DNA of 64,000 nt from positions 930,001 to 994,000 of the forward strand of contig JAZAQT010000221.1 of assembly GCA_036417435.1 (NCBI GenBank), in the 5' to 3' direction. This document shows, piece after piece, positions 1 to 33,655 of the stretch; within the stretch, counting starts at the first letter, position 1, and the number at the start of each line of letters is the position of its first letter. Under the pieces are notes generated by a model. The model was not told the origin of the DNA, made no database searches, and saw only the letters and a list, made by a program, of their open reading frames with translations. Both the position numbers and the translations under genes were made by a program. This DNA is from Inia geoffrensis. Its lineage: Eukaryota; Chordata; Mammalia; Artiodactyla; Iniidae.

Positions 1-59
1 ATGGAAATAATGTATTCATATAAATGCACGTATGTGAAGGGAAGAACCTTTTTTTCTGT

Positions 60-800
60 TTTAATTGTTTTTTAAATTTTGAAATATATTTTAGTTTTTT
101 ATACAGCAGGTTTTTATTGGTTATCTATTTTACACTTGGTTATCTATTTATCTATTGGTTATCTATTTTATACATATAAATGCCAATCTGAATCTCTCAA
201 CTCCTCCCACCACCTAACCCCCACAGCTTTCCCCACTTGATGTCCATATGTTTTTTTCTCTACATCTGTTGCTCTATTTCTGCCTTGCAAACTGGTTCAT
301 CTGCACAATTTTTCTAGGTTCCACATATATGAATTCATATACAATATTTGTTTTTCTCTTTCTGACATACTTCACTCTCTATGACAGTCTCTAGATCCAT
401 TGACATCTCTACAAATGATCCAACTTCATTCATTCTTATGGCTGAGTAATATTCCATTTTATATATGTATCATCTCTTTATGCATTCATGTGTCTGTGGA
501 CATTTAGGTTGCTTCCATTACCTGGCTATTATAGTGATGCAATGAACTTTGTGGTGAAAACCTCCTCTTTATTTTTGTTTTTTTTCTGGATATATGCCCA
601 GGAGTGAGATGGCTGGATCATATGGTAATTTATGGTTAGTTTTTAAGGAACCTCCATGCTGTTCTCTATTGTAACTGTATCAATTTACATTCCCAACAAT
701 AGTGGAAGAGGTTTCCTTTTCTCCACACCATTCGAGCCTTTGTTGTTTGCAGAATTTCTGATAATGCCCATTCTAACAGGTGTGAGGTGATACTTCATTG
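60..800 (-). mobile_element. Antisense LINE-1 3' end (ORF2 C-terminus plus 3' UTR), truncated
   Basis: Read on the minus strand, this matches the end of mammalian L1. The stretch around 440-460 (plus strand atggctgagtaatattcca) is the reverse complement of the well-known ORF2 C-terminal coding segment, and the segment near 590-640 (ggatatatgcccaggagtg, then ctggatcatatggta) is the adjoining ORF2 region. Bases of about 100-400 resemble the cetartiodactyl L1 3' UTR. The element lacks most of ORF2 and everything 5' of it, so it is a fossil with no activity. It abuts satellite at about 800. A short imperfect tandem duplication of a ttggttatctatttt-type motif lies at about 115-172. Confidence 0.85.
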
Positions 801-802
801 TT

Positions 803-3800
803 GAGTTTATTTCTTTGAGCAAGGAGTAGGTCCTGTCTATTACATACTTGGCTTATGGAATGGTTTTTGGGCTAATTTCAATCTCTGGTTTTATGACGCA
901 CCCCAACTCAACTTTCCCCTTAAAAAAAGCATAAGATTGTTTCCTAAAAGTGAGACTCTGTTGTGTTTTGTAATTCAGTTCATGTGTAGCCAAGTTTACA
1001 TTCCCTTTATTAGTGATAACTTATAAGAATTTTCTTTTTCTGTGTGACTTATTTCACATAGAATCATCGTACTGGAATCCATTCATTTTGCTTCTACAGG
1101 CCTGATTACATTAATATCACTGTTGAGTGACATTTCATTATACAAAAGAAGCACAAGGTCTTTATCCATTTTTTTCTGTCCAGGATATATAAGTTGTACT
1201 GTAGTGGACATTGCTGAAAACACAGCAGTCCTAAATATTGGGGTGGCTGTGTCTTCCTCCTTTAAATTTTCCTAAGCTATAGGGCCATAAGTGGAAGTGC
1301 CCTAGGCTCTGTGGCTTTGATTTTTAGATGTTTCAGGAAACACCATACACATCTCCACAGTACTCGTTGGCAATTTACATCCCGCCAATCAGCATAACCA
1401 AGCTCCCTGTACTCCATGGCCAGTCCTGTCTCTCGGGATTTTACACTTTTTTCAGACGACACTTTAAAGCGGTGGGAAGTGAGACTTCATTGTAGTGCAA
1501 ATTTCCATTACAGGCTTGTTTGTTGGCCAAAAAGAGGGTATGCGTTTTTTCTGGAATATATTCAGGAAAAAACACATACGCCCTTTTTGGCTAAGTGTAT
1601 CATTGTCGAAGTGCTGCCTCTTTTCCTTTACTTTCAGAGCAATTTTAATCTACCACCGGATATCTGTTTTCTGCAATTCTGCCTCGCGTTCAAGTCCTCT
1701 TCACAGCCTTCCTTCAATATATTTTTGGATGATAGGGGTCATGTGTAATTGTGCAGGATTGTGAATTACAGTGTTCAAAAAGCTCCTTTTTTCAACTAGC
1801 TTCCTTGTGAGCTGACTGCAAAACCGAAGAATTGCTTCAGGCCCTAACCTGGTTCTGGCAAGGCACGCTGAGCCTTTGGTGAATTCTTCTCCCTGGTGGG
1901 AAATCAGAGTTCAATGTGCCCGTCCAAACACATAGAGATAGTCCCTCATTGGATCTCCTTATTCCTGGTCATCTTCTACAGAAATTACTAACTGTGAAAC
2001 CGTTCATCTGGAGCCGTGTTTATACTCCCGGTGTTAATGATATGTTGTGATGTTTCTTTTTCTGTGTGACTTATTTCACTTAGAAGCATCGTACCTACAT
2101 CCACTCATTATGCTGCTACTGGTCTGTTGCCATTGATTTCGTTGTTGAGTGATATTCCATTGTAGGGATGTACCACAACTTCTATATCCATTTTTCTCTT
2201 TCTGGGCTATTGAAGTTGTACCATAGTCAAGATTCCCGTAAACAGAGCAGCCCCAAGTTTTGGTGTGGCTGTGTCTTTTTCATTTAAATTTTCCGAATCT
2301 ATAGCACCATAAGTGGAAGTGCCCTAGGCTCTCTAGCTTGTTTTCTTCTTTGTTTCAGGAAACACCATCCACTTCTCCAGAGCGGCTGTTGGCAATTTGC
2401 ATCCCACCCATCAGCATAACAAGGCTGCCGGTTCTCCCTGGTCTGTCCTGCTCGTCTGGATTTTACACTTTTTTCGGACGACGCTTTTGAGCGGTGGGAA
2501 GTGACACTTCATTGTAGTGTGGATTTCAGTTACAGGCTTGCTTGGTTGGCCAAAAAGGGCGTATGCCTTTTTTCCTGAATATATTCGGAAAAAACGCACA
2601 AGCAATTTTTGGCCAAGTGTGTCATTGTCGAAGTTCTGCCTCTTTTCCTATTTTTTCAGAGCAATTCCTATTTACCGCCTGAAAACATTTTCCTGCAATT
2701 CTGTCACGTGTTCAGTTCCTCTTCACAGCCTTACTTCAGGATATTTTTGGATGATAGGGTTCATTTGTTACTCTGCAGGTTTGTGAAGTACAGTGGTTTT
2801 AAGTTTTTTTCTCAACTAGCTTTCTCGTGATCTTACCACAATACAGCAGAATTGCTTCAGGCCCTAATCTGGTTTCGGCATGGCATGCTGTGCCTTTGGT
2901 GAATTTTTCTTTCTGGTTGGAAATCAGAGTTCAATGTGCCCGTTCAAACACAGTTAGTTGCTCATTGGTTCTCCCTGTTCCTGTTAACCTTCAGAAGAAA
3001 TTGCGAGCTTTGCCAAACAGGAGGTTAAACATTGTCTCTCATAATGTGGAGAGAGATAGTAAAGCTTATGGAAAGGGGATCCCGAGTAACAGGGGGCAAA
3101 AACTGAGATGAGTGTTAGAAAATTTGCTCGATCACTTGGTTGACCACAATTTGGGTTTCTCATGCATATTTTAACTGAAGGATGAATCCCTTAAACCTGG
3201 AGATTTGAAAGCCATGGAATGGGGACCATGCACTATTCCATCAAAGGGTCTTCATTCGCTCATGAAACCTCAGCAATCCTATCAGCCCCAAGTGTCCAGC
3301 CTTGTATCTCCCCCAGCTGTGTATGTAGAGAGAAATCCAGGTTTCATCACAAGCCCTGAATGAAAGAGTTAAGAATTTCTCTCTATTTCACTGTTTTTGT
3401 GTTTTGTTTTTGCAATTTATTTTTATAATAGGATATAGCTAATTTTCACTGCTGTGTTTGTGCCGCTGTACACACACATGATTCTATTACAGCGACCTAC
3501 AAATACATGGGTTTTAAGTTTCTTCGTGGTCAGGTATATTCCTAGGCAGTGAATACAGGGTGTCAAGTCCATTTCGTTGGGCAAGGTGTAGGTCTTGTCT
3601 AGTATATATTTGGCTTATGGAATGGTATCTGTACTAATTTCAACCTCTGCTCTTATACAGCCTCCCAACTCACCTTTTCCATTAAGCAACCTTAAGTTTC
3701 TTTGGTAAATGTGAGACTATTGTGTTTTGTCATACAGTTCATGTGTAGCCGTGTTTACATTCTGGTATTAGTGATAACTTATGATGTTTCTTTTTCTGTG

Positions 3801-6127
3801 TGACTTATTTCACTTAGAATCATCGTACCTAAACCACTTATTATGCTGCTACGGGCCTGGTGACATTAATTTCATTGCTGAGTAATATTCTATTGTACTT
3901 AAGTACCACAACTTCTATATCTATTTTTTCTCTTTCTGGGCTATTGAAATTGTACCATAGTCGAGGTTCTTGTAAACAGAGCAGCCCCAAACTTTGGGGT
4001 GGCTGTGTCTTTTTCAGTTGAATTTTCCTAATCTGTAGGACCATAAGTGGAAGTGCCCTCGGTTCTGTAGCTTGGTTTTTTATATGTTTCAGAAAACACC
4101 GTATACTTCTCCAGAGTGGCTGTTGGCAATTTACATCCCACCCAACAGCATAAAAAGGCTGCCTGTTCTCCACTTTCTGTCCGGCCTCTCTGGATTTTAC
4201 AATTTTTTCAGACAACTCTTTTGAGCATTGGGACGTGAGACTTCATTGTAGTGCGGATTTCCATTGCAGGCTTTCTTGGTTGGCCAAAAAGGGCGTATGC
4301 ATATTTTCCTGAATATAATCAGGAAAAAATGCATATGCTCTTTTTGGCCATGTGCATCACTGTTGAAGTTGTGCCTCTTTCCCTATGCTTTAAATGTATT
4401 TCCAATCTATCACTTGAAATCGCTTTCCTGCAATTCTCCCTCGCTTTCAAGTCTTCTTCGCATCTTTACTTCTATATATTTCTGGATGATAGCAGTCATT
4501 TGTAACTCTGCTGTTTTGTGAATTACAGTTCCTCTGAGCTCCTTTTTTCAGCTCCCTTTCTTGTGAGCTGACTGAAAAACTGCAAGATTGCTTCAATCCA
4601 TATTCTTGTTTTCAGGCGACTTGCTGAGCCTTTGGTTAATACTTCTTCCTCATGTGAATTGAGAGTGAAATGTGCCCATCAAAGCCCTTACGGCTAATTT
4701 TTCATTGTTTCTCCCTCTTCCCATTGATCCTCTGTACTAATTGCAGACTGTGCAAAACAGGAAATTAAAGGCATTGACTATGCAAGTGGTGTGATTGTTA
4801 GTAAAGCGCTGGAAGGTTGATCCTGTGACCCAGTAGAGGAAAAATGAGGTGCGTTTTAGAAACCTTTCCCAATCACATGGTATACCATCTGTTGGGTTTC
4901 TCATGCATGGTTTCGCTGTAAGAAGATTCCCTTAAACCTGGAGTGTTGTGACCCACGGAATGAGTAGCTTTAATTATTGTATTAGAGGTTCGGCATTTGC
5001 TCACCAAAGCTAACCAATCCTCACAGCCCCATGTGTCCAGCCTTATGTCTTATCCAGCTATGGGTTTCTATGTGATCAATCCACTTTGCATCACAGCCCC
5101 TGAATCAATTTTGTACGAGTGTTTCTCTCTTTCTTTGTCTCTGTGTTTTGTTTTTAAATTTTATTTTTATAATGGTGTTTAGCTGATTATCACTGCTGTG
5201 TTTGTGCCACTCTGCACACACTTGAGTCCCTTATGGAGATATATCAATATATAGGTTTTAAGATTCCTACTACTCACATATATTCCTCTGTGGTGAATAG
5301 GGTGTGTTGAGGCCAGTTCATTGAGCAAGGTGTAGATCTTGTCTATTACGTATTTGGTTTATTGAATGGTATCTGTGTTCATTTCAAACTCTGATTTTAT
5401 GCATCACCCCACCTCACCTTTCCCCTTAAGCTGGCATAAGTGTGTTTTCTAAATGTGAGACACTCTTGTTTTGTAATTCAGTTGTTGTGCAGTCATATTT
5501 ACATTCCCTCTATGAGTGATATCTTATGATATGTTTCTTTTTCTGTGTGACTTAAGTCAAGCAGTATCGTCGAAACTCGATCCACTCTTTATGCTTCTAC
5601 TAGCCTTATTACATTGATTTCATAGTGAAGAGATATTCCATTGTGCGTAAGTACCACACCTTCCTTATCCATTGTTCTCTTTCCTGGGGTATTTAAGGTG
5701 TACTGAAGTCGAGGTTCTTGTAAACAGAGCAGCCCTAAACTTTGCTGTGCCTGTGTCTTTTTGATTTTTAGACTTCCCTAGATATGCTCCTGTGATTGCA
5801 AGTGCCCTATGCTCTGTAGCTCTGCTTTTTAGATGATTTACAAACCAGGATACACTTCTCCAGAGTGCCTCTTCTCAGTTTACACACAGCCCATCAGTGT
5901 ATAAAGGCTGCCTGTTCTCCATGGCCTGTCCTGCATTTCTGCGTTTTACAATTTTTTCAGATGGCCCTTTTGACCGGTGGGAAATGAGACTTCTTTGGTG
6001 TGCAGATTTGCATTGCTTGCTTTCTTGGTTGCCCATAAAGTGCATATGCGTGTTTTCCTGAATATATTCAGGAGAAGATGCATACGCCCTTTTTGGCCAA
6101 CTGCACCATTTTAGAAATCCTGCCGCC
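803..6127. repeat. Degenerate common cetacean satellite block, composite copy 1
   Basis: This holds about three and a half diverged monomers of the same satellite that fills 33.6-64 kb. The monomer palindrome recurs at 1525-1592, 2548-2614, 4282-4349 and 6031-6098, with spacings of 1,023, 1,734 and 1,749 bp. The short first spacing reflects a deletion of about 0.71 kb near 2000-2015, where the first monomer jumps to the segment normally found just before ttagtgatat. These monomers differ from the right-hand array monomers and from one another far more than the unit copies differ from each other, so they were already old when the composite unit was amplified. The block ends a short way past the fourth palindrome. 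Confidence 0.92.
1525..1592. repeat. Satellite palindrome (degenerate)
   Basis: This 68-bp inverted repeat starts ggccaaaaagagggtatg and closes with the mutated end ggct. Its arms pair imperfectly around a central gaatatattc. It is the first of four palindromes in the satellite block of composite copy 1. The other three are at 2548-2614, 4282-4349 and 6031-6098, the last with a mutated left end (gccc). Equivalent sites lie about 10,403 and 20,808 bases downstream in copies 2 and 3. Confidence 0.85.
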
Positions 6128-6240
6128 TTGGGATGTAGGCAGAGTGCGAACTTTAGATGATTGATGCCGTCAGGGTGAGAAGCACTCACCAACGGCTTCC
6201 CTTAGGTTACATTTTAACTGTCATTGATAGATGATGTCAA

Positions 6241-6430
6241 TAAATATATCTATGCTTTTTCAGATTTTTTCCCCTTACACGTTATTGCAAAATATTGAGT
6301 GTAGTTCCCTATGCTATATAGTAGTTCCTTGTTGATGATCTACTTTATACATAACAGTGTGTATGTGTTAATCCCAAACTGTTAATTTATCCCTCCTCCC
6401 ACTTTCCCCTTTGGTAATAATAAATTATAA
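6241..6430 (-). mobile_element. Second antisense L1 3'-UTR fragment
   Basis: On the plus strand this reads from a ctttttcagattttttcccc segment through tattgagtgtagttcccta to the run ccctcctcccactttcccc. That order is the antisense of a cetartiodactyl L1 3' UTR end. It is closer to ordinary L1 than the related part of the satellite monomer, which has ttgagtccatttggttgag at the equivalent place, so it appears to be an independent L1 remnant rather than satellite. Between it and the satellite lie about 110 bases (6128-6240) in which I recognise nothing. Confidence 0.7.
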
Positions 6431-7799
6431 GATTTTATACTTCTCAGAAATGGGGGAGCTGAAACAGAGGTATAATTTTCAATGGAAAAGCATTTAAAAC
6501 AAGATTGAAGCTTTAACCAAGATTATTAGATGTGCATCCTTGGAAAGAAATCACTTCATTTCTCTAATATTGACCTGACAAATAAGACAAATCTTTTCAC
6601 TGAACTTGCTTATAATAGAATGATGGAAATATAAAATGGAAGTGTTAGAAACATCTTATTTTACCCGAGCCTTATACACTGTTCTATGTTAATTACAGTT
6701 TGGCTCACACATCTGTTTATTGAAGTTACAATGTTATCAATTTCTGTTACTGATCCTCCACAATGGACCCCAACAAGTATCCCCCTGCCCAGTGTCATTG
6801 GAGCCAACAGATCGAGACTGAGTTTGGTTCAGAAGCAAAGGAAACTATATTTTGATCAGAGAATGGAGAAGTGAGAGAATGCGCTACCCCACAGGCTGTG
6901 TGTTGGCCTGCTGTGTACAGGTCCTGTCAGAGTCAGTGGGAGGGAGGGGGCGGAGCTCTCAGAGGCCGGGTTGGATGCAGCTCAGGCTCTATATCTTGGA
7001 GCCTGCACTGGGCCCCAGGAGCTGAAGTGTCGACCCAGCCATTCTGCAGTAGGAAATCTGGTCTAAAGTGCCGGGTGTGGCAGCTCTGCATGCGGGAACC
7101 TAGGAGCACTTGAAATTAGGCAAATCACAAAGGGTAACAAAGGTTAGACTTTATTTTATTGCCCAGATTCTATTTTTATGTCCCAAGGATTTTTAATGGG
7201 CTTTGCTGGTGACAAAGCCCTCCTCTGCCTTTTGTCCCGTTCCTCATTCTTGGAGTGCTGAGTGTGCAGACCCCTCTTCTGTAACTGCTGAGTGCTGAGT
7301 TGGGAGCCCTCATACCCGGGGGTGAGGGTCAGAACTTCTCCCCAGCAGCCTCCAGGTGAGATTCATTGTCCCCAGAGCTGCTGCCTCCCTGCTCGTCCAC
7401 CTGAGTACCAGCATTGGAAGTGTTATAGATTCTAATGACCTTTAAGGGTACAGGAAAGGGATGTGCAGAGACAATGTGGAGGCAGGTTTTACCCCACTGC
7501 ACATTTGTTAGGCCACCTTAGGCTGACCGTTTCTGTCAGCCTAGATGCTCTGACCAGCAGTCTTTGTTTTCTTCAATTAGGCCCCTGAATTAATGTAAAA
7601 ACAGTACCAGGTGTCAGAGCCTTGCCTGCTCAACTCCCAGTCAGTCCAGGGTCAGTGGTGATGCAACACCATGATGGACACTGAGTCAACAGCCTTTTGA
7701 GGTAGCCAGGACTGCAGCTGGTCTTATTGGCCACCACCACCACGGTGGCTGTAGGCTTTTCTATGGTGACAATGTGATATATGGTTCCCCTGCCAAGCT
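6431..7799. other. Unidentified DNA, composite copy 1
   Basis: I recognise no gene or repeat family here. It begins AT-rich (6431-6860) and becomes GC-rich at about 6860-7120, with a short G-rich stretch (gggagggagggggcggagc) near 6940. The longest open frames are 60-80 residues, have no recognisable domain, and look like chance. On the minus strand there is an AATAAA-type signal at about 7150-7160. Part of 7620-7799 may be a continuation of the ERV that follows, but I cannot show that. Confidence 0.5.
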
Positions 7800-9045
7800 T
7801 ATTAGCTCCCCTCTGGGTGCAGTAAGCCCTGAAAGCAGTAGTCTACTCTTTTTTGACACACTCTTGTTGTTTTCTGAGAGAAACTCCAGGTAAAGTGATG
7901 GTTACACGAGTTGCCATGGGGCCCCGTTGCCCCCAGTTGTCTTTCTGGAGGTTGGAGTTGGAGGGTCTCCTCACTCGAGGTCAGTGTGCCCATGGAGCGA
8001 ACCCTGCAACCTCAGGGCATGTTTGGTGGTTAGGATCAACACATGGGGTCCTTTTCCCTTAGGAGGGAGGTGGCCTTTCAGGCTGCTGATTTCCAGGTTT
8101 TTAGATACTGCCAGTATCCTGGCCAGATGTGGTGGTGGACCAAGCCCCTTGGTGACCGTAGTTTATCCTACCTGGTTAGCATTCTTGCGTTGTTCCTTTT
8201 CAAGTGGTCCCGGTTTTTGCACTAATACTCCAATGGCAATTCACCTTTCACCAGGAATGTAAAGGTCAAAGGGTTTAGCTAAATTAGGGAGTTCCAGGTC
8301 AAGGGTCTGAATTGACCGCTCTTTCCATTCTTGAAAGACCACTTCTGGATTCTATTCAAAAGGATCATCATCTTTTCCTTTCAGTGTTTCATATAGAGGC
8401 CCAGCTATTAGACTGTAGTTCGGGATCCAGATGCAGCAAACCCCAGCCTCCCCAGGAACTCCTAAGCTGTCTTCTACTTTTAGAAGGGCTAAGGCTGCAA
8501 ATGGTTTCTTCCCTTTCCTGGGATGGGCTTCTCAGACCTTCTGTGAGAACGAAGCCCAGGCAGGTCACCTTAGTGTGTGATATTTGAGCTTTTTCTTGGA
8601 CAACTTCTATCCTATATTGGCTTGGTAGTTCAGAGGCCTCCTTAGTAGAGCTGGCGATTAGATTGGTGTCTGCATATTGAAGGAGGGTTTCCTTTTCCAG
8701 AGGTAGAACTTTTAGGTCTTTAGCTAAGCTTTCCCAAAGATGGTGTGGGAATTTTTATACCCTTGAGGCGAGGCGGCCCAGCAGTATTATTTTTGTTGTA
8801 TGTTGAGTCCTGCCAGTCACGAGGCAAAATTTCTTGTGACTCTGGGACTAATGGAATGCAAAAGAAGGCATCATTGAAGTCTAATACAGAACACCATGTC
8901 CTGGTGGTTGGTAGAATGACTAGCAGTGTGTAGGAATTAGGAACTACTAGAGGTATACCCTCGGTGGCATAACTGACTGTCCTGACATCCTTTACCAGGT
9001 CCCCAGCGGCCCATTTGTCTCTCGTGGTCAGGCAATTACCAGGAT
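7800..9045 (-). pseudogene. Decayed class I (gamma-like) ERV pol fragment, reverse transcriptase region
   Basis: Read on the minus strand, the start near 8990-8800 encodes a retroviral reverse transcriptase N-terminal block with the motif VLDFNDAFFCIPL (codons around 8890-8852), preceded by VPNSYTLL. The polymerase active-site motif lies at 8653-8682 but reads LQYADTNLIA, so one catalytic aspartate and the usual valine are lost. It is also in a different frame from the first block, so at least one frameshift separates them. A connection-like segment (PFDLYIPG at about 8276-8253) is followed at once by an in-frame stop at 8241-8243. No gag, integrase or env could be recognised. It cannot encode a functional enzyme. 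The gammaretrovirus-like assignment rests on motif spacing and wording only. Confidence 0.75.
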
Positions 9046-9420
9046 ATGGAGCTCACCTGGGCAGGTACCTCACCCCCACCCCAGCTCATTGGGCTCTCCT
9101 GGTCAAGCCCCTCCCAGGATACAGATCTACCCTTGCAGGTACCGTGGCAGGGCTGGGCAAAGAGGAACCGTGCACATAGCCCTCATTGCAGAGCAACCTC
9201 AGCTCACCTGTCTCTCAGAGCTGACACAGAGCACCTCAGAGCAGGACTTGAACTAACAAACAGCAGCTCCGACATGTCTGTGACCCTGGGCATCACTCTG
9301 CAGGGCCTCCCTCTGCCTGGTCTTCCAGACACTTCCACTGCACCCAGGGCACCAAGCCGCTGCCTCCAGCCACCACTCACCTCTCCTCTCCCTGACTTCT
9401 GTGTCCCACTCATTAGGAGA
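9046..9420. other. Unidentified GC-rich DNA between ERV pol and LTR-like element
   Basis: No family recognised. Long overlapping open frames occur on both strands (for example about 128 codons on plus, 9046-9432), but the composition is GC-rich and neither frame has a recognisable domain. The plus-strand frame changes its end between unit copies through small indels (copy 3 reads a different C-terminus), which argues against coding constraint. Confidence 0.4.
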
Positions 9421-9745
9421 CGATTTTCTTGAAGCTATCTCCCACTCATGGGCCAGATAAAATGATTCGAAAACAAGCCAGAGCTGCAGCCCCTTGTGTA
9501 TCCGGACTTTCAAGAGCCTACACCTGTTGCTTGGAGATGGCCCGTTCAGCAAGGTAAATTTTCTGCAACTGTGAGCCCCTGAGTAGTGAGGATTGGCTGA
9601 CCTGTGCAGCCTGACCAATCGGGCCAGCCCTCCCCAGGTGTGCATGTTTTGAGGTCAATATAAACACTGCACCAGGCAGCAAGAGCCCCTGCAGCTCTGC
9701 CTGACACCATATTCTCTGTCCTGTCATTAGTCTCGGGGCTGGGCT
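9420..9745 (+). promoter_or_regulatory. LTR-like promoter segment
   Basis: An inverted CCAAT (attgg, 9592-9596), a direct CCAAT (9615-9619) and a TATA-like box (tataaa, 9659-9664) sit in the order and spacing of a retroviral LTR U3/R region. A downstream ctctgcctgacaccatattc segment resembles an LTR R/U5. The orientation is plus, opposite to the pol fragment, so if it is an LTR it belongs to a different or rearranged element. I found no clear terminal TG...CA pair or target-site duplication. An ordinary unique promoter or chance are alternatives. Confidence 0.4.
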
Positions 9746-10326
9746 GGTGGGAGGGATTGAGAAGCCACGGCTTTGTGAGAGGCCTAGTGTGAGTTGGGCT
9801 CTGCTGGACTTTCTGCAGCAGTTTCCAGGCTGCCACCTGCTAAAGAAGAGGATGTGTCACCTATAACTGCTGCTGGAGTTTCTCCCTGGGCAGAGGTGAG
9901 GGAGGAAAAAAAGCAGTGGGGGCGGGACAGGAGGGGTTTCTCAGGCAGGGAAATGGAAGGCTTCCAGAAGAGCACCCAGGGCCAGGACCATCCTGGCTGG
10001 CCTGCAGGCACCAAGTCGGCCGGCATGCTGTCACTTGTGTGGCTCCACGGCCCTTCCTCTAGGCTTTCAAGTCCTTGCACATATTCAGGTGTTTTACCTG
10101 GGAAGGGTGGGAACAGTTCAGCAGCAGCTGGCCTGGGCCTCAGCTCACGTTTACTCACAGAGGTCTCGGCACAGTCCCCCAGCTTTACAATGAGGACACT
10201 TGTTGCGTGGGGGCTGCTGGTTGAATGGGAGATGATTCCCCTCACTGACCAACTTCAGAATTGTTTACAACTGGAGCAAGTGCCCTGATACGGTTTTCCT
10301 CTGTGTAACTGGTGGGTTCTGTTTAG
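9746..10326. other. Unidentified GC-rich stretch, elevated divergence between copies
   Basis: No repeat family or gene recognised. Open frames of 164 codons (plus, 9794-10288) and 153 codons (minus, 9784-10245) overlap almost completely, as expected of GC-rich stop-poor DNA. Neither shows a domain, a signal peptide or a good boundary. The copies of this stretch in units 1-3 differ at about 2% of positions, more than ten times the rate in the satellite part. Confidence 0.4.
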
Positions 10327-10345
10327 TTTTTTTTTTTTTTTTTTT
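10327..10345 (-). repeat. Poly-T tract (19 T), probable antisense poly-A tail
   Basis: A run of 19 T closes composite copy 1. The same tract is 21 T at 20730-20750 and 22 T at 31133-31154. A poly-A tail of the adjoining antisense L1, whose 3' end lies just to the right, would explain it, but about 120 bases separate the tract from clear L1 sequence. The length variation accounts for most of the 1-2 base difference in unit period. Confidence 0.6.
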
Positions 10346-10462
10346 CTTTATTTTGGGTTCTAGGTAGATTTTATTCCTCTTTTTTGTATTTACAGATATA
10401 AGCATGGAAATAATGTATTCATATAAATGCACGTATGTGAAGGGAAGAACCTTTTTTTCTGT

Positions 10463-11203: not shown

Positions 11204-11205
11204 TT

Positions 11206-16530: not shown

Positions 16531-16643
16531 TTGGGATGTAGGCAGAGTGCGAACTTTAGATGATTGATGCCGTCAGGGTGAGAAGCACTCACCAACGGCT
16601 TCCCTTAGGTTACATTTTAACTGTCATTGATAGATGATGTCAA

Positions 16644-20729: not shown

Positions 20730-20750
20730 TTTTTTTTTTTTTTTTTTTTT
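20730..20750 (-). repeat. Poly-T tract (21 T)
   Basis: Equivalent of 10327-10345, two bases longer. It is followed by ctttactttgggttttagg, where copy 1 has ctttattttgggttctagg. Confidence 0.6.
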
Positions 20751-20867
20751 CTTTACTTTGGGTTTTAGGTAGATTTTATTCCTCTTTTTTGTATTTACAG
20801 ATATAAGCATGGAAATAATGTATTCATATAAATGCACGTATGTGAAGGGAAGAACCTTTTTTTCTGT

Positions 20868-21608: not shown

Positions 21609-21610
21609 TT

Positions 21611-24600: not shown

Positions 24601-26935
24601 TTTCTGTGTGACTTATTTCACTTAGAATCATCGTACCTAAACCACTTATTATGCTGCTACGGGCCTGGTGACATTAATTTCATTGCTGAGTAATATTCTA
24701 TTGTACTTAAGTACCACAACTTCTATATCTATTTTTTCTCTTTCTGGGCTATTGAAATTGTACCATAGTCGAGGTTCTTGTAAACAGAGCAGCCCCAAAC
24801 TTTGGGGTGGCTGTGTCTTTTTCAGTTGAATTTTCCTAATCTGTAGGACCATAAGTGGAAGTGCCCTCGGTTCTGTAGCTTGGTTTTTTATATGTTTCAG
24901 AAAACACCGTATACTTCTCCAGAGTGGCTGTTGGCAATTTACATCCCACCCAACAGCATAAAAAGGCTGCCTGTTCTCCACTTTCTGTCCGGCCTCTCTG
25001 GATTTTACAATTTTTTCAGACAACTCTTTTGAGCATTGGGACGTGAGACTTCATTGTAGTGCGGATTTCCATTGCAGGCTTTCTTGGTTGGCCAAAAAGG
25101 GCGTATGCATATTTTCCTGAATATAATCAGGAAAAAATGCATATGCTCTTTTTGGCCATGTGCATCACTGTTGAAGTTGTGCCTCTTTCCCTATGCTTTA
25201 AATGTATTTCCAATCTATCACTTGAAATCGCTTTCCTGCAATTCTCCCTCGCTTTCAAGTCTTCTTCGCATCTTTACTTCTATATATTTCTGGATGATAG
25301 CAGTCATTTGTAACTCTGCTGTTTTGTGAATTACAGTTCCTCTGAGCTCCTTTTTTCAGCTCCCTTTCTTGTGAGCTGACTGAAAAACTGCAAGATTGCT
25401 TCAATCCATATTCTTGTTTTCAGGCGACTTGCTGAGCCTTTGGTTAATACTTCTTCCTCATGTGAATTGAGAGTGAAATGTGCCCATCAAAGCCCTTACG
25501 GCTAATTTTTCATTGTTTCTCCCTCTTCCCATTGATCCTCTGTACTAATTGCAGACTGTGCAAAACAGGAAATTAAAGGCATTGACTATGCAAGTGGTGT
25601 GATTGTTAGTAAAGCGCTGGAAGGTTGATCCTGTGACCCAGTAGAGGAAAAATGAGGTGCGTTTTAGAAACCTTTCCCAATCACATGGTATACCATCTGT
25701 TGGGTTTCTCATGCATGGTTTCGCTGTAAGAAGATTCCCTTAAACCTGGAGTGTTGTGACCCACGGAATGAGTAGCTTTAATTATTGTATTAGAGGTTCG
25801 GCATTTGCTCACCAAAGCTAACCAATCCTCACAGCCCCATGTGTCCAGCCTTATGTCTTATCCAGCTATGGGTTTCTATGTGATCAATCCACTTTGCATC
25901 ACAGCCCCTGAATCAATTTTGTACGAGTGTTTCTCTCTTTCTTTGTCTCTGTGTTTTGTTTTTAAATTTTATTTTTATAATGGTGTTTAGCTGATTATCA
26001 CTGCTGTGTTTGTGCCACTCTGCACACACTTGAGTCCCTTATGGAGATATATCAATATATAGGTTTTAAGATTCCTACTACTCACATATATTCCTCTGTG
26101 GTGAATAGGGTGTGTTGAGGCCAGTTCATTGAGCAAGGTGTAGATCTTGTCTATTACGTATTTGGTTTATTGAATGGTATCTGTGTTCATTTCAAACTCT
26201 GATTTTATGCATCACCCCACCTCACCTTTCCCCTTAAGCTGGCATAAGTGTGTTTTCTAAATGTGAGACACTCTTGTTTTGTAATTCAGTTGTTGTGCAG
26301 TCATATTTACATTCCCTCTATGAGTGATATCTTATGATATGTTTCTTTTTCTGTGTGACTTAAGTCAAGCAGTATCGTCGAAACTCGATCCACTCTTTAT
26401 GCTTCTACTAGCCTTATTACATTGATTTCATAGTGAAGAGATATTCCATTGTGCGTAAGTACCACACCTTCCTTATCCATTGTTCTCTTTCCTGGGGTAT
26501 TTAAGGTGTACTGAAGTCGAGGTTCTTGTAAACAGAGCAGCCCTAAACTTTGCTGTGCCTGTGTCTTTTTGATTTTTAGACTTCCCTAGATATGCTCCTG
26601 TGATTGCAAGTGCCCTATGCTCTGTAGCTCTGCTTTTTAGATGATTTACAAACCAGGATACACTTCTCCAGAGTGCCTCTTCTCAGTTTACACACAGCCC
26701 ATCAGTGTATAAAGGCTGCCTGTTCTCCATGGCCTGTCCTGCATTTCTGCGTTTTACAATTTTTTCAGATGGCCCTTTTGACCGGTGGGAAATGAGACTT
26801 CTTTGGTGTGCAGATTTGCATTGCTTGCTTTCTTGGTTGCCCATAAAGTGCATATGCGTGTTTTCCTGAATATATTCAGGAGAAGATGCATACGCCCTTT
26901 TTGGCCAACTGCACCATTTTAGAAATCCTGCCGCC
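21611..26935. repeat. Degenerate common cetacean satellite block, composite copy 3
   Basis: Copy of 803-6127, with palindromes starting near 22,333, 23,356, 25,090 and 26,839. A few private substitutions occur (for example atcatcatactgg near 21,874). Confidence 0.92.
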
Positions 26936-27048
26936 TTGGGATGTAGGCAGAGTGCGAACTTTAGATGATTGATGCCGTCAGGGTCAGAAGCACTCACCAA
27001 CGGCTTCCCTTAGGTTACATTTTAACTGTCATTGATAGATGATGTCAA

Positions 27049-27238
27049 TAAATATATCTATGCTTTTTCAGATTTTTTCCCCTTACACGTTATTGCAAAA
27101 TATTGAGTGTAGTTCCCTATGCTATATAGTAGTTCCTTGTTGATGATCTACTTTATACATAACAGTGTGTATGTGTTAATCCCAAACTGTTAATTTATCC
27201 CTCCTCCCACTTTCCCCTTTGGTAATAATAAATTATAA
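27049..27238 (-). mobile_element. Second antisense L1 3'-UTR fragment, composite copy 3
   Basis: Same fragment as 6241-6430. Confidence 0.7.
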
Positions 27239-28607
27239 GATTTTATACTTCTCAGAAATGGGGGAGCTGAAACAGAGGTATAATTTTCAATGGAAAAGCA
27301 TTTAAAACAAGATTGAAGCTTTAACCAAGATTATTAGATGTGCATCCTTGGAAAGAAATCACTTCATTTCTCTAATATTGACCTGACAAATAAGACAAAT
27401 CTTTTCACTGAACTTGCTTATAATAGAATGATGGAAATATAAAATGGAAGTGTTAGAAACATCTTATTTTACCCGAGCCTTATACACTGTTCTATGTTAA
27501 TTACAGTTTGGCTCACACATCTGTTTATTGAAGTTACAATGTTATCAATTTCTGTTACTGATCCTCCACAATGGACCCCAACAAGTATCCCCCTGCCCAG
27601 TGTCATTGGAGCCAACAGATCGAGACTGAGTTTGGTTCAGAAGCAAAGGAAACTATATTTTGATCAGAGAATGGAGAAGTGAGAGAATGCGCTACCCCAC
27701 AGGCTGTGTGTTGGCCTGCTGTGTACAGGTCCTGTCAGAGTCAGTGGGAGGGAGGGGGCGGAGCTCTCAGAGGCCGGGTTGGATGCAGCTCAGGCTCTAT
27801 ATCTTGGAGCCTGCACTGGGCCCCAGGAGCTGAAGTGTCGACCCAGCCATTCTGCAGTAGGAAATCTGGTCTAAAGTGCCGGGTGTGGCAGCTCTGCATG
27901 CGGGAACCTAGGAGCACTTGAAATTAGGCAAATCACAAAGGGTAACAAAGGTTAGGCTTTATTTTATTGCCCAGATTCTATTTTTATGTCCCAAGGATTT
28001 TTAATGGGCTTTGCTGGTGACAAAGCCCTCCTCTGCCTTTTGTCCCGTTCCTCATTCTTGGAGTGCTGAGTGTGCAGACCCCTCTTCTGTAACTGCTGAG
28101 TGCTGAGTTGGGAGCCCTCATACCCGGGGGTGAGAGTCAGAACTTCTCCCCAGCAGCCTCCAGGTGAGATTCATTGTCCCCAGAGCTGCTGCCTCCCTGC
28201 TCGTCCACCTGAGTACCAGCATTGGAAGTGTTATAGATTCTAATGACCTTTAAGGGTACAGGAAAGGGATGTGCAGAGACAATGTGGAGGCAGGTTTTAC
28301 CCCACCGCACATTTGTTAGGCCACCTTAGGCTGACCGTTTCTGCCAGCCTAGATGCTCTGACCAGCAGTCTTTGTTTTCTTCAATTAGGCCCCTGAATTA
28401 ATGTAAAAACAGTACCAGGTGTCAGAGCCTTGCCTGCTCAACTCCCAGTCAGTCCAGGGTCAGTGGTGATGCAACACCATGATGGACACTGAGTCAACAG
28501 CCTTTTGAGGTAGCCAGGACTGCAGCTGGTCTTATTGGCCACCACCACCACGGTGGCTGTAGGCTTTTCTATGGTGACAATGTGATATATGGTTCCCCTG
28601 CCAAGCT
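27239..28607. other. Unidentified DNA, composite copy 3
   Basis: Copy of 6431-7799. Nothing recognised. Confidence 0.5.
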
Positions 28608-29853
28608 TATTAGCTCCCCTCTGGGTGCAGTAAGCCCTGAAAGCAGTAGTCTACTCTTTTTTGACACACTCTTGTTGTTTTCTGAGAGAAACTCCAGGTA
28701 AAGTGATGGTTACACGAGTTGCCATGGGGCCCCGTTGCCCCCAGTTGTCTTTCTGGAGGTTGGAGTTGGAGGGTCTCCTCACTCGAGGTCAGTGTGCCCA
28801 TGGAGCGAACCCTGCAACCTCAGGGCATGTTTGGTGGTTAGGATCAACACATGGGGTCCTTTTCCCTTAGGAGGGAGGTGGCCTTTCAGGCTGCTGATTT
28901 CCAGGTTTTTAGATACTGCCAGTATCCTGGCCAGATGTGGTGGTGGACCAAGCCCCTTGGTGACCGTAGTTTATCCTACCTGGTTAGCATTCTTGCGTTG
29001 TTCCTTTTCAAGTGGTCCCGGTTTTTGCACTAATACTCCAATGGCAATTCACCTTTCACCAGGAATGTAAAGGTCAAAGGGTTTAGCTAAATTAGGGAGT
29101 TCCAGGTCAAGGGTCTGAATTGACCGCTCTTTCCATTCTTGAAAGACCACTTCTGGATTCTATTCAAAAGGATCATCATCTTTTCCTTTCAGTGTTTCAT
29201 ATAGAGGCCCAGCTATTAGACTGTAGTTCGGGATCCAGATGCAGCAAACCCCAGCCTCCCCAGGAACTCCTAAGCTGTCTTCTACTTTTAGAAGGGCTAA
29301 GGCTGCAAATGGTTTCTTCCCTTTCCTGGGATGGGCTTCTCAGACCTTCTGTGAGAACGAAGCCCAGGCAGGTCACCTTAGTGTGTGATATTTGAGCTTT
29401 TTCTTGGACAACTTCTATCCTATATTGGCTTGGTAGTTCAGAGGCCTCCTTAGTAGAGCTGGCGATTAGATTGGTGTCTGCATATTGAAGGAGGGTTTCC
29501 TTTTCCAGAGGTAGAACTTTTAGGTCTTTAGCTAAGCTTTCCCAAAGATGGTGTGGGAATTTTTATACCCTTGAGGCGAGGCGGCCCAGCAGTATTATTT
29601 TTGTTGTATGTTGAGTCCTGCCAGTCACGAGGCAAAATTTCTTGTGACTCTGGGACTAATGGAATGCAAAAGAAGGCATCATTGAAGTCTAATACAGAAC
29701 ACCATGTCCTGGTGGTTGGTAGAATGACTAGCAGTGTGTAGGAATTAGGAACTACTAGAGGTATACCCTCGGTGGCATAACTGACTGTCCTGACATCCTT
29801 TACCAGGTCCCCAGCGGCCCATTTGTCTCTCGTGGTCAGGCAATTACCAGGAT
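28608..29853 (-). pseudogene. Decayed ERV pol fragment, composite copy 3
   Basis: Copy of 7800-9045, with the same inactivating changes in the active-site motif, the same frameshift and the same stop. Confidence 0.75.
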
Positions 29854-31132
29854 ATGGAGCTCACCTGGGCAGGTACCTCACCCCCACCCCAGCTCATTGG
29901 GCTCTCCTGGTCAAGCCCCTCCCAGGATACAGATCTACCCTTGCAGGTACCGTGGCAGGGCTGGGCAAAGAGGAACCGTGCACATAGCCCTCATTGCAGA
30001 GCAACCTCAGCTCACCTGTCTCTCAGAGCTGACACAGAGCACCTCAGAGCAGGACTTGAACTAACAAACAGCAGCTCCGACATGTCTGTGACCCTGGGCA
30101 TCACTCTGCAGGGCCTCCCTCTGCCTGGTCTTCCAGACACTTCCACTGCACCCAGGGCACCAAGCCGCTGCCTCCAGCCACCACTCACCTCTCCTCTCCC
30201 TGACTTCTGTGTCCTCTCATTAGGAGACGATTTTCTTGAAGCTGTCTCCCACTCATGGGCCAGATAAAATGATTCGAAAACAAGCCAGAGCTGCAGCCCC
30301 TTGTGTATCCGGACTTTCAAGAGCCTACACCTGTTGCTTGGAGATGGCCCGTTCAGCAAGGTCAATTTTCTGCAACTGTGAGCCCCTGAGTAGTGAGGAT
30401 TGGCTGACCTGTGCAGCCTGACCAATCGGGCCAGCCCTCCCCAGGTGTGCATGTTTTGAGGTCAATATAAACACCGCACCAGGCAGCAAGATCCCCTGCA
30501 GCTCTGCCTGACGCCATATTCTCTGTCCTGTCATTAGTCTCGGAGATGGGCTGGTGGGAGGGATTGAGAAGCCACGGCTTTGTGAGAGGCCTAGTGTGAG
30601 TTGGGCTCTGCTGGACTTTCTGCAGCAGTTTCCAGGCTGCCACCTGCTAAAGAAGAAGATCTGTCACCTATAACTGCTGCTGGAGTTTCTCCCTGGGCAG
30701 AGGTGAGGGAGCAAAAAAAGCAGTGGGGGCGGGACAGGAGGGGTTTCTCAGGCAGGGAAATGGAAGGCTTCCAGAAGAGCACCCAGGGCCAGGACCATCC
30801 TGGCTGGCCTGCAGGCACCAAGTCGGCCGGCATGCTGTCGGTTGTGTGGCTCCACGGCCCTTCCTCTAGGCTTTCAAGTCCTTGCACATATTCAGGTGTT
30901 TTACCTGGGAAGGGTGGGAACAGTTCAGCAGCAGCTGGCCTGGGCCTCAGCTCACGTTTACTCACAGAGGTCTCGGCACAGTCCCCCAGCTTTACAATGA
31001 GGACACTTTTGCGTGGGGGCTGCTGGTTGAATGGGAGATGATTCCCCTCACTGACCAACTTCAGAATTGTTTACAACTGGAGCAAGTGCCCTGATACGGT
31101 TTTTCTCTGTGTAACTGGTGGGTTCTGTTTAG
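29854..31132. other. GC-rich stretch with LTR-like promoter, composite copy 3
   Basis: Copy of 9046-10326. Small indels (tgtcctctcattagg near 30,211; cacttttgcg near 31,008) change the reading frames relative to copies 1 and 2. The CCAAT and TATA-like boxes are retained at about 30,421 and 30,465. Confidence 0.45.
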
Positions 31133-31154
31133 TTTTTTTTTTTTTTTTTTTTTT
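31133..31154 (-). repeat. Poly-T tract (22 T)
   Basis: Equivalent of 10327-10345, the longest of the three. Confidence 0.6.
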
Positions 31155-31271
31155 CTTTACTTTGGGTTTTAGGTAGATTTTATTCCTCTTTTTTGTATTT
31201 ACAGATATAAGCATGGAAATAATGTATTCATATAAATGAACGTATGTGAAGGGAAGAACCTTTTTTTCTGT

Positions 31272-32012
31272 TTTAATTGTTTTTTAAATTTTGAAATATA
31301 TTTTAGTTTTTTATACAGCAGGTTTTTATTGGTTATCTATTTTACACTTGGTTATCTATTTATCTATTGGTTATCTATTTTATACATATAAATGCCAATC
31401 TGAATCTGTCAACTCCTTCCACCACCTAACCCCCACAGCTTTCCCCACTTGATGTCCATATGTTTTTTTCTCTACATCTGTTGCTCTATTTCTGCCTTGC
31501 AAACTGGTTCATCTGCACAATTTTTCTAGGTTCCACATATATGAATTCATATACAATATTTGTTTTTCTCTTTCTGACATACTTCACTCTCTATGACAGT
31601 CTCTAGATCCATTGACATCGCTACAAATGATCCAACTTCATTCATTCTTATGGCTGAGTAATATTCCATTTTATATATGTATCATCTCTTTATGCATTCA
31701 TGTGTCTGTGGACATTTAGGTTGCTTCCATTACCTGGCTATTATAGTGATGCAATGAACTTTGTGGTGAAAACCTCCTCTTTATTTTTGTTTTTTTTCTG
31801 GATATATGCCCAGGAGTGAGATGGCTGGATCATATGGTAATTTATGGTTAGTTTTTAAGGAACCTCCATGCTGTTCTCTATTGTAACTGTATCAATTTAC
31901 ATTCCCAACAATAGTGGAAGAGGTTTCCTTTTCTCCACACCATTCGAGCCTTTGTTGTTTGCAGAATTTCTGATAATGCCCATTCTAACAGGTGTGAGGT
32001 AATACTTCACTG
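31272..32012 (-). mobile_element. Antisense LINE-1 3' end, composite copy 4
   Basis: Same truncated antisense L1 as at 60-800, with a slightly higher load of private substitutions. Confidence 0.85.
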
Positions 32013-32664
32013 TTGAGTTTATTTCTTTGAGCAAGTAGTAGGTCCTGTCTATTACATACTTGGCTTATGGAATGGTTTTTGGGCTAATTTCAATCTCTGG
32101 TTTTATGACGCACCCCAACTCAACTTTCCCCTTAAAAAAAGCATAAGATTGTTTCCTAAAAGTGAGACTCTGTTGTGTTTTGTAATTCAGTTCATGTGTA
32201 GCCAAGTTTACATTCCCTTTATTAGTGATAACTTATAAGAATTTTCTTTTTCTGTGTGACTTATTTCACATAGAATCATCGTACTGGAATCCATTCATTT
32301 TGCTTCTACAGGCCTGATTACATTAATATGACTGTTGAGTGATATTTCATTATACAAAAGAAGCACAAGGTCTTTATCCATTTTTTTCTGTCCAGGATAT
32401 ATAAGTTGTACTGTAGTGGACATTGCTGAAAACACAGCAGTCCTAAATATTGGGGTGGCTGTGTCTTCCTCCTTTAAATTTTCCTAAGCTATAGGGCCAT
32501 AAGTGGAAGTGCCCTAGGCTCTGTGGCTTTGATTTTTAGATGTTTCAGGAAACACCATACACATCTCCACAGTACTCGTTGGCAATTTACATCCCGCCAA
32601 TCAGCATAACCAAGCTCCCTGTACTCCATGGCCAGTCCTGTCTCTCGGGATTTTACACTTTTTT

Positions 32665-32678
32665 CAGACGACACTTTA
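32665..32678. repeat. Target-site duplication, left copy
   Basis: The 14 bases cagacgacacttta are repeated at 32,897-32,910. They mark L1-mediated insertion of the SINE and leave no doubt about its borders. Confidence 0.9.
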
Positions 32679-32896
32679 TTTTTTTTATTATTTTTTTTTT
32701 TTTTGCGGTACGCGGGCCTCTCACTGCTGTGGCCCCTCCCGTTGCGGAGCACAGGCTCCGGACGCGCAGGCTCAGCGGCCATGGCTCACGGGCCCAGCCG
32801 CTCCGCGGCATGTGGGAATCTCCCAGACCGGGGCATGAACCTGTGTCCCCTGCATCGGCAGGCGGACTCTCAACCACTGCACCACCAGGGAAGCCC
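32679..32896 (-). mobile_element. tRNA-derived SINE of the cetacean CHR type
   Basis: On the minus strand it begins gggcttccctggtggtgcag, the familiar tRNA-derived head of CHR-type SINEs of whales and hippos. It continues through a GC-rich body and ends in an A-rich tail, seen here as the T-rich run at 32,679-32,704. It is full length and little degraded. A 14-bp target-site duplication, cagacgacacttta, flanks it at 32,665-32,678 and 32,897-32,910. The equivalent sites in composite copies 1-3 are empty, with one copy of that sequence. The insertion accounts for the 232-base offset jump within copy 4. Confidence 0.92.
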
Positions 32897-32910
32897 CAGA
32901 CGACACTTTA
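32897..32910. repeat. Target-site duplication, right copy
   Basis: Second copy of cagacgacacttta, immediately after the SINE head. It is followed by aagcggtggg as in the empty sites of the other copies. Confidence 0.9.
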
Positions 32911-33585
32911 AAGCGGTGGGAAGTGAGACTTCATTGTAGTGCAAATTTCCATTACAGGCTTGTTTGTTGGCCAAAAAGAGGGTATGCGTTTTTTCTGGAA
33001 TATATTCAGGAAAAAACACATACGCCCTTTTTGGCTAAGTGTATCATTGTCGAAGTGCTGCCTCTTTCCCTTTACTTTCAGAGCAATTTTAATCTACCAC
33101 CGGATATCTGTTTTCTGCAATTCTGTCTCGCGTTCAAGTCCTCTTCACAGCCTTCCTTCAATATATTTTTGGATGATAGGGGTCATGTGTAATTGTGCAG
33201 GATTGTGAATTACAGTGTTCAAAAAGCTCCTTTTTTCAACTAGCTTCCTTGTGAGCTGACTGCAAAACCGAAGAATTGCTTCAGGCCCTAACCTGGTTCT
33301 GGCAAGGCACGCTGAGCCTTTCGTGAATTCTTCTCCCTGGTGGGAAATCAGAGTTCAATGTGCCCGTCCAAACACATAGAGATAGTCCCTCATTGGATCT
33401 CCTTATTCCTGGTCATCTTCTACAGAAATTACTACCTGTGAAACCGTTCATCTGGAGCCGTGTTTATACTCCCGGTGTTAGTGATATGTTGTGATGTTTC
33501 TTTTTCTGTGTGACTTATTTCACTTAGAAGCAACGTACCTACATCCACTCATTATGCTGCTACTGGTCTGTTGCCATTGATTTCG

Positions 33586-33655
33586 TTGTTGAGTGATATT
33601 CCATTGTAGGGATGTACCACAACTTCTATATCCATTTTTCTCTTTCTGGGCTATT
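33586..33655. other. Junction of composite array and regular satellite array
   Basis: The last composite-specific base is 33,585 (tttcgttg, where regular monomers have tttcattg). The first base typical of regular monomers 1 and 2 is 33,656 (ctattaaagt, where the composite has ctattgaagt). The roughly 70 bases between are identical in both arrays. The change therefore happened inside homologous satellite and in register, as expected of homologous exchange or break repair. Confidence 0.8.

What the first reader, a model, noticed from the sequence alone, without database searches (positions are those of the whole stretch)
1..33655. A 10.4-kb composite satellite: old satellite, L1, ERV and other DNA amplified as one unit
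Three full copies and one partial copy of a unit mix degenerate common cetacean satellite (about 5.3 kb) with about 5.1 kb of other DNA: two L1 remnants, an ERV pol fragment, an LTR-like promoter and unidentified sequence. Satellite monomers inside the unit are strongly diverged from one another, yet unit copies are about 0.1-0.2% different over most of their length. So a dead patch of satellite with its insertions was captured and re-amplified recently as a new, larger satellite. I do not know of a description of this composite form.
Basis: partly seen in the sequence, partly recalled or inferred. Interest (0 to 1): 0.78.

Follow-up and report, generated by a model that had tools for sequence, protein, structure and literature searches.

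The report
Composite satellite at satellite-array border
A 10.4-kb block made of worn-out satellite DNA plus old mobile-element debris has been copied in tandem and, on eleven sequence contigs examined in this apparently whale genome, starts at the very same base next to a telomere-like satellite, which suggests that blocks of repetitive DNA are traded between chromosomes.

Summary
Window 1-33,655 carries 3.2 copies of a 10,403-10,405-bp unit: 5,331 bp of diverged ~1,735-bp satellite plus 5,072 bp of other DNA with a decayed antisense gammaretrovirus-like pol and an L1 ORF2 end. Copies differ by 0.12-0.20%, except in a 1.05-kb patch (1.6-1.9%) where gene conversion is likely.

It is not local. 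In the window's own genome a probe from the non-satellite part gave 1,530 first-look candidates; the 40 scored are full length and ~100% identical, on 19 contigs. The block here has 8 copies. Its left neighbour is a telomere-like 168-bp satellite, its right neighbour the homogeneous 1,735-bp array. On 11 of 11 contigs where the left edge was reached (13 tried) the join is at the same base. Copy number runs from 1 to 8; C12 holds a single copy with the structure expected of the founder.

Best reading: one old satellite/satellite border with debris was tandemly amplified by in-phase exchange between satellite monomers and spread between chromosomes. New variant of a known kind (composite satellites; ape subterminal-cap spacers). 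The unit length equals about six monomers; this is unexplained.

The parts
1..798 (+). Right end of the preceding unit copy (L1-derived part); the block continues left for about 49 kb beyond the window, to contig position 880,674
799..11201 (+). Unit copy c1 (u5 of the block), 10,403 bp
11202..21606 (+). Unit copy c2 (u6), 10,405 bp
21607..32010 (+). Unit copy c3 (u7), 10,404 bp
32011..33655 (+). Partial copy c4, right edge of the block; identity to the other copies falls at 33,656-33,676 (monomer position ~212)
799..2011 (+). Satellite piece t of c1: monomer positions 1549-1736 then 1-1007; an internal deletion joins position 1007 to about 1716 (read by eye)
2012..3746 (+). Monomer A of c1, chimeric: first ~640 bp array-like; right of 3036 no interior-wide difference from the left-edge (founder-side) copies
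   Evidence: with c1-private sites removed
3747..6129 (+). Diverged monomers B (3747-5483) and partial C (5491-6129), 78.5-79% identical to the array consensus
6130..11201 (+). Non-satellite part X of c1 (5,072 bp)
8434..8995 (-). Decayed gammaretrovirus-like reverse transcriptase pieces (ERV pol remnant)
   Evidence: E 1.2e-11; E 5e-4
9380..10430 (+). Variable patch: 28 of 49 inter-copy SNVs; probably gene conversion
10326..11216 (-). Antisense L1 3' part with poly(T) at its left end; 11133-11216 matches L1 ORF2p residues 1105-1132
32679..32896 (-). 218-bp retroposon (SINE; cetacean CHR type is recalled) in copy 4 and in none of the other copies of this block, with a 14-bp target-site duplication
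33656..64000 (+). Right neighbour: homogeneous satellite array, 1,728-1,737-bp monomers, 92-99.9% identical
34607..55515 (+). Two-copy tandem duplication of six monomers inside the array, period 10,405-10,406, 24 differences in 10,496 bp

Best explanation
It is a composite satellite that grew from one border. Founder: a telomere-like 168-bp satellite array met an old, decayed stretch of the 1,735-bp satellite that carried a 5-kb debris segment X, followed by the active 1,735-bp array. Step 1 (inferred from the chimeric monomer A): unequal homologous exchange, in monomer phase, between the satellite right of X and the old satellite left of X made a head-to-tail 10.4-kb duplication. Step 2 (outcome shown): copy number drifted to 1-8 per site, with local homogenisation, a two-unit duplication and conversion patches. 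Step 3 (outcome shown, route inferred): the border was copied to many contigs, most likely by ectopic exchange between heterochromatic blocks, because the same join recurs. No coding or regulatory function is indicated; it behaves as selfish or neutral tandem DNA and possibly as a shared strip of homology for exchange.
For: Own-genome search: 40 of 40 scored hits full length at ~100%, 19 contigs, neighbouring hits 10.40-10.41 kb or multiples apart. Eight X copies in a row read at this site, steps 10,402-10,405. Left join to the telomere-like satellite at the same unit base (pos 1900) on 11 of 11 contigs reached, 13 tried; on the 10 beyond C362 its place was predicted from unit phase, with one to three candidate places probed per contig. 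Right switch in the same 60-bp window on 8 of 10 contigs where the right side was reached or bracketed. C12 holds one copy between the two edges, 97.6-100% identical to c1 in 250-bp windows from 3101 on. Interior A differs from the left-edge copies of C362 and C12 at 11 SNV sites and a 2-base gap in 2740-3036 and at none in 3037-3745 (c1-private sites removed), as a crossover near 3037 would leave. At C19 the right side has changed to young satellite within 1 bp of phase. At C171:512-522 kb a unit core lies between young satellite on both sides, in phase.
Against: Sites were chosen from the 40 best hits to this window's copy, so diverged versions and other arrangements are under-sampled. Two of ten right sides differ from the common switch: C19, and C10, where a probe 8 kb past an interior-type probe is plain array although X was expected there. 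At least two places have units inside the 1,735-bp array away from the telomere-like satellite (C171:512-522 kb; C362 near 0.10-0.12 Mb). Except at C362 and C12, copy numbers are computed from edge distances with sampled probes. C362/C171 (99.8% identical 5.7 kb outside the join) and perhaps C2/C12 may be alleles or assembly duplicates, so independent sites are fewer than contigs. C12 could be a contraction rather than the founder state. Spread by older duplication rather than ectopic exchange is not excluded.
Confidence: 0.75

Rival explanations
1. Assembly artefact: the tandem copies come from mis-joined reads or from the two haplotypes laid end to end.
For: Divergence between window copies (0.1-0.3%) is of the order of heterozygosity (inference); C362 and C171 are identical over a 600-bp right-edge probe and 99.8% identical 5.7 kb outside the left join. 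No reads could be examined.
Against: The same period and the same left join recur on many contigs with different copy numbers and outer flanks that mostly differ; copies carry private variants; a retroposon sits in one copy of this block only.
Confidence: 0.05
2. Independent origins: X, or a mobile unit holding X, was inserted or captured repeatedly into satellite arrays, and each site amplified on its own.
For: Units inside the 1,735-bp array away from the border; variable copy number; C19 and C10 right sides differ.
Against: Same left join to the base on 11 of 11 contigs. The first ~500 bp of interior A are 95-100% identical to the window's in 60-bp windows in 7 of 7 interior probes (C10 two, C6, C191, C218 two, C21), while right edges differ there. 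The in-array unit at C171 passes into young satellite in phase on both sides, as exchange would do.
Confidence: 0.08
3. End-joining tandem duplication: the unit was closed at one of the X/satellite joins (6129/6130 or 11201/11202) by non-homologous repair, not by exchange between satellite monomers.
For: Both X borders are abrupt; the X-to-satellite join shares only about 3 bases by eye.
Against: The single-copy site C12 already has both X joins, so they can be older than the tandem state; the only extra junction in interior copies lies inside monomer A.
Confidence: 0.1

Closest known systems
Common cetacean satellite (L1-derived monomer; Kapitonov et al. 1998 as cited in PMC9659126, passages seen; the 1998 paper itself not seen)
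   Same: Tandem ~1,735-bp monomer with a stretch weakly colinear with an L1 3' end; the right-hand array is presumably this satellite
   Different: The 10.4-kb unit is half non-satellite; the published monomer was not available for comparison, so the name is inferred
SD spacers in ape subterminal heterochromatic caps (PMC12758386, abstract and 12 passages seen)
   Same: Satellite blocks with a shared non-satellite segment copied to many chromosomes; nearly identical blocks on non-homologous chromosomes; exchange proposed to run through the spacer
   Different: Ape spacers are ~30-50 kb segmental duplications; here the spacer is itself a 10.4-kb tandem composite, half old satellite, and lies between two different satellites; methylation unknown
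Sheep Y centromere composite repeat, 2.51 kb x 47 units (PMC11436988, passages seen)
   Same: Tandem unit mixing LINE, SINE and unidentified DNA in an artiodactyl
   Different: No older satellite in the unit as described in the passages; one chromosome; centromeric
ACRO 6-kb composite repeat and the gorilla SST1/HSat1A composite (PMC12767296, passages seen)
   Same: A known satellite recombined with other DNA and re-amplified, shared between chromosomes
   Different: Different sequences; no shared join to a second satellite is described in the passages seen
Composite satDNA monomers from 'TE graveyards' (PMC12628747, passages seen)
   Same: Proposes tandem amplification of degraded TE remnants in heterochromatin
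   Different: There the monomers carry short TE stretches; here a founder-like structure and its border are still visible

Membership tests
Composite satellite / composite repeat | Unit made of several unrelated components | tested here: met
   Satellite, L1, ERV pol and unidentified DNA
Composite satellite / composite repeat | Head-to-tail array with a regular period, at more than one genomic site | tested here: met
   8 X copies in a row at C362; 19 contigs among 40 scored hits
Common cetacean satellite (right-hand array) | ~1.7-kb monomer with L1 3'-end homology | tested here: met
   1,728-1,737 bp; weak colinear match (59%, E 5e-21) to the unit's L1 segment, which itself matches L1 ORF2p
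Common cetacean satellite (right-hand array) | Sequence identity with the published monomer | not testable with these tools
   No eukaryotic repeat library at hand
Ape-type subterminal cap with spacer | Satellite blocks separated by a shared duplicated spacer on several chromosomes | tested here: met
   Telomere-like satellite joined to the composite at one base on 11 contigs; 1,735-bp array or its first monomer to the right on C362, C171, C175, C10, C6, C2, C12, C21, C19 and C191
Ape-type subterminal cap with spacer | Location at chromosome ends | tested here: inconclusive
   0.1-1.6 Mb from an end of the large contigs C6, C10, C12, C21, but 21 Mb inside C19; contig ends need not be chromosome ends
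Ape-type subterminal cap with spacer | Spacer is hypomethylated | not testable with these tools
   No methylation data
Ape-type subterminal cap with spacer | Ectopic exchange with breakpoints in the spacer | tested here: inconclusive
   Shared join and a likely conversion patch, but no breakpoints mapped between named chromosomes

The most novel reading that the evidence does not exclude
This genome has an ape-cap-like system that arose independently: a spacer between two satellites serves as the shared homology through which non-homologous heterochromatin blocks exchange. The spacer could amplify because its length is commensurate with the host satellite (about 10,404 bp, six monomers): misaligned arrays stay in register on both sides of it, and the same six-monomer shift then produced the neighbouring array duplication. 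Prediction: composite units amplified inside satellite arrays have lengths that are whole multiples of the host monomer.
Probability: 0.2. Interest if true: 0.8.

Novelty: new variant of a known kind. Interest (0 to 1): 0.62.

Why it matters
Composite satellites are usually seen after the founder is lost. Here one genome appears to hold the whole series: a single-copy border with the structure expected of the founder, two-, three-, four- and eight-copy versions, and units that have moved into the plain array, many of them tagged by one join. That makes the order of events (capture, in-phase exchange, spread) testable by counting. It also offers a possible non-primate case of satellite blocks with a shared spacer, and a concrete length rule (whole multiples of the monomer) that can be checked in other satellite-rich genomes.

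Tried and rejected
Local duplication only: dropped after the own-genome search answered. Weak 'satellite' match at 346-813 (59%): this is L1 homology shared by the satellite, not satellite. Hypermutation as the cause of the variable patch: little CpG context (4 of 28 SNVs there, against 6 of 21 elsewhere) and Ts/Tv not different from the rest (p 0.77); for it, 22 of 28 SNVs hit C or G (p 0.004) and 4 of the 13 sites that separate u4 and u6 are private to u6. Allele sharing at the other 9 of 13 and 73 of 378 four-gamete failures favour conversion. Across contigs the patch is only about twice as variable as its flanks (1.04% against 0.52%). Homology of the outer telomere-like flank: at 5.7 and 15 kb from the join, identities between contigs are mostly within the range of random pairs inside that satellite (means 85.8-88.0, maxima 96.8-97.8); above it are C362/C171 (99.8%) and, over partial alignments, C2/C12 (98.5% of 339) and C6/C19 (98.3% of 344). 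Pfam on ORF pieces gave only hits below cut-off (BRI3 E 0.008; MLVIN_C E 0.007; two weaker). No Rfam family at its gathering score and no tRNA in the window. TRF found nothing in the window because its longest period is 500. A 30-base satellite palindrome pattern was not found in viral contigs. The first alignment of the array duplication failed in its middle and was redone piecewise.

Not done: a count of all copies and of all left joins in the genome (searches did not complete); the parts of X at about 6431-7799 and 9046-10326 remain unidentified; no other whale assembly could be reached; the second L1 end and the LTR-like promoter were not tested.
Full report
What is in the window. Positions 1-33,655 hold 3.2 copies of a head-to-tail unit of 10,403-10,405 bp, followed to the window end by a regular array of ~1,735-bp monomers. 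Each unit has 5,331 bp of that satellite in diverged form (799-6129 in copy c1) and 5,072 bp of other DNA (X, 6130-11201). The satellite pieces are t (with a deletion that joins monomer position 1007 to about 1716, read by eye), full monomers A and B, and partial C. They are 76-81.5% identical to one another, while monomers of the array are 92-99.9% identical. X contains a decayed antisense reverse transcriptase closest to gammaretroviruses (solved structures, E 1.2e-11 and 5e-4; no Pfam hit) and an antisense L1 end matching L1 ORF2p residues 1105-1132 (E 1.2e-4). A second L1 end near 6250-6420 is recognised from memory only. The 'LTR-like promoter' was not tested. About 2.6 kb of X stays unidentified.

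Differences between copies. Across the three full copies there are 49 SNVs. Pairwise difference is 0.12-0.20% outside 9380-10430 and 1.6-1.9% inside. In 10,000 random placements no 1,050-bp stretch held more than 17 SNVs, against 28 observed. Copies u4 and u6 of the block differ by 0.02% outside the patch but at 13 sites inside it. At 9 of the 13 the u6 allele also occurs in other sampled copies, at 4 it is private, and 73 of 378 pairs of informative sites fail the four-gamete test in 26 sequences. So the patch is best read as a place where copies have swapped short tracts, with some new mutation. The 18 sequences from other contigs were taken from among the 40 best matches to the window's X and are not a random sample; among them and c1-c3 the patch is about twice as variable as its flanks (1.04% against 0.52%).

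Genome scale. The own-genome search answered once. The window is G000:C362:930001-994000 in a 2.75-Gb assembly of 895 contigs. A 1,369-bp piece of X gave 1,530 first-look candidates. Only 40 were scored; all 40 were full length and ~100% identical, on 19 contigs. Neighbouring hits lie 10,403-10,413 bp or multiples apart. The figure 1,530 is not a copy count. At this site the block runs from 880,674 to 963,655 with eight X copies, all read, steps 10,402-10,405. Units u3-u4 were recently duplicated as u5-u6 (0.02% outside the patch).

A border between two satellites. Left of the block lies a satellite of period 168 bp rich in GGGTTA. To the right, all 13 probes between 1.014 and 1.72 Mb hold the 1,735-bp satellite, one of them (1.014 Mb) only in part. 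From the unit phase I predicted where the left join should fall on other contigs if it were shared, and fetched 500-bp probes there (one to three candidate places per contig). On C362, C171, C10, C6, C175, C2, C12, C21, C19, C218 and C191, 11 of 11 contigs where the edge was reached, the telomere-like satellite meets unit position 1900, with a 3-bp overlap in the alignments; on C647 and C177 the two probes each were still inside the block. The right switch from unit to array falls in the same 60-bp window on C362, C171, C175, C6, C2, C12, C21 and C191. Two further right sides differ. On C19 the array begins earlier, inside the copy of t, though its monomer position there (914) is within 1 bp of that expected. 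On C10 an interior-type probe at 111.4414 Mb is followed by plain array at 111.450 Mb, where X was expected. On C218 the probes were still inside the block. So 8 of 10 right sides share the switch. Edge distances give X copy numbers of 1 (C12, C19), 2 (C6, C2, C21), 3 (C175), 4 (C191), 8 (C362, C171), at least 6 (C10) and at least 7 (C218). Only C362 and C12 were read through; the rest are computed from the coordinates.

How the tandem state arose. At C12 a single copy lies between the same two edges: telomere-like satellite, tail of A, B, C, X, t, array; it is 97.6-100% identical to c1 in 250-bp windows from 3101 on. This is the structure expected of the founder, although a contraction back to one copy would look the same. 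In multi-copy sites the only extra junction is inside monomer A. Interior A differs from the left-edge copies of C362 and C12 at 11 SNV sites and a 2-base gap in 2740-3036 and at none in 3037-3745, once four sites private to c1 are set aside; its first ~640 bp are array-like (90-99%). That is what an exchange between satellite right of X and satellite left of X, in monomer phase, would leave. At the differing sites neither side is consistently closer to the array consensus, so the direction is not shown by this alone. In 7 of 7 interior probes on C10, C6, C191, C218 and C21 the first ~500 bp of A match the window's at 95-100% in 60-bp windows, which fits a single origin; the exchange point itself was not read on those contigs. 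A unit core in C171 at 512-522 kb, with young satellite on both sides in phase, shows the same kind of exchange moving X into the plain array. A further block near 0.10-0.12 Mb of C362 also lies between array probes. These are settings other than the border and count against a strict 'border only' reading.

How far the sites are independent. At 5.7 kb outside the left join C362 and C171 are 99.8% identical (94.8% at 15 kb); most other pairs are within the range of random pairs of that satellite, with C2/C12 and C6/C19 just above it over partial alignments. C2 and C12 also carry the same L1 sequence at nearly the same distance beyond the right edge. So C362/C171 and C2/C12 may be alleles or recent copies, and the number of separate sites is below 11; six to eight is my grouping.

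An unexplained number. The unit (10,402-10,405 bp here, up to about 10,413 on other contigs) equals six array monomers (10,404-10,414 bp in this array) although half of it is not satellite; and the array beside it holds a two-copy duplication of that period (34,607-55,515; 24 differences in 10,496 bp). A length drawn at random from 3-20 kb falls within 2 bp of a whole multiple of the mean monomer 0.3% of the time, within 10 bp 1.2%. This is post hoc and rests on one founding event. If real, it suggests that inserts which keep the array in register are the ones that can be amplified by array misalignment.

Comparison with what is known. Composite repeats are a known kind: sheep Y centromere (PMC11436988, passages), ACRO and the gorilla SST1 composite (PMC12767296, passages), and a review that proposes composite monomers from TE graveyards (PMC12628747, passages). 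The nearest parallel in behaviour is the spacer of ape subterminal caps, copied to many chromosome ends and linked with ectopic exchange (PMC12758386, passages). I found no description of the 10.4-kb unit in the open-access library searched (listings only apart from the papers named); most subscription papers are not in it. The telomere-like flank recalls the GC-rich 'heavy' satellite of baleen whales; that is from memory.

Verdict. Observation confirmed, interpretation supported and extended. New variant of a known kind, of good interest because a founder-like state, an amplification series and a shared join can all be seen in one genome.

Noticed in passing
window 34,607-55,515: Two-copy tandem duplication of six monomers in the plain array, with nearly the same period (10,405-10,406) as the composite unit.
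   Followed up: partly
window 9,380-10,430 and equivalents: 1.05-kb patch with about ten times the variation of the rest of the unit between the window's copies; allele sharing suggests gene conversion.
   Followed up: yes
window 32,665-32,910: 218-bp SINE-like insertion with a 14-bp target-site duplication in copy 4 only. Edge distances on C171 and C191 exceed whole units by about 245-255 bp, as if their right edges carried it too; those on C175, C6, C2, C12 and C21 do not (inference).
   Followed up: partly
monomer positions about 535-606 (e.g. window 1523-1594): A ~70-bp near-perfect palindrome found in the monomers mapped, resembling a mariner-derived MITE (recalled); the unit's satellite ends about 30 bp beyond one at 6129.
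   Followed up: no
L137 (C171:512,701-522,074): A unit core (B, C, X, part of t) inside the plain array, passing into young satellite in phase on both sides.
   Followed up: partly
L037 and L134 (C362:100,001-100,500 and 120,001-120,500): Unit sequence (98.4% and 97.6%) between plain-array probes at 90 and 150 kb: a second composite block on the same contig.
   Followed up: no
L122 and L124 (C2 and C12, about 10.4 kb beyond the right edge): The same L1 sequence at nearly the same distance on both contigs, so the two may be alleles or recent copies of one another.
   Followed up: no
window 7,633-7,842 and 7,974-8,162, minus strand: Pfam hints below cut-off of a BRI3-like retropseudogene (E 0.008) and a gammaretroviral integrase end (E 0.007) in X.
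   Followed up: no
L014 and L015 (C362:840-850 and 860-870 kb): Telomere-like satellite of period 168 bp built from GGGTTA-like words, 80-81% match between copies.
   Followed up: partly
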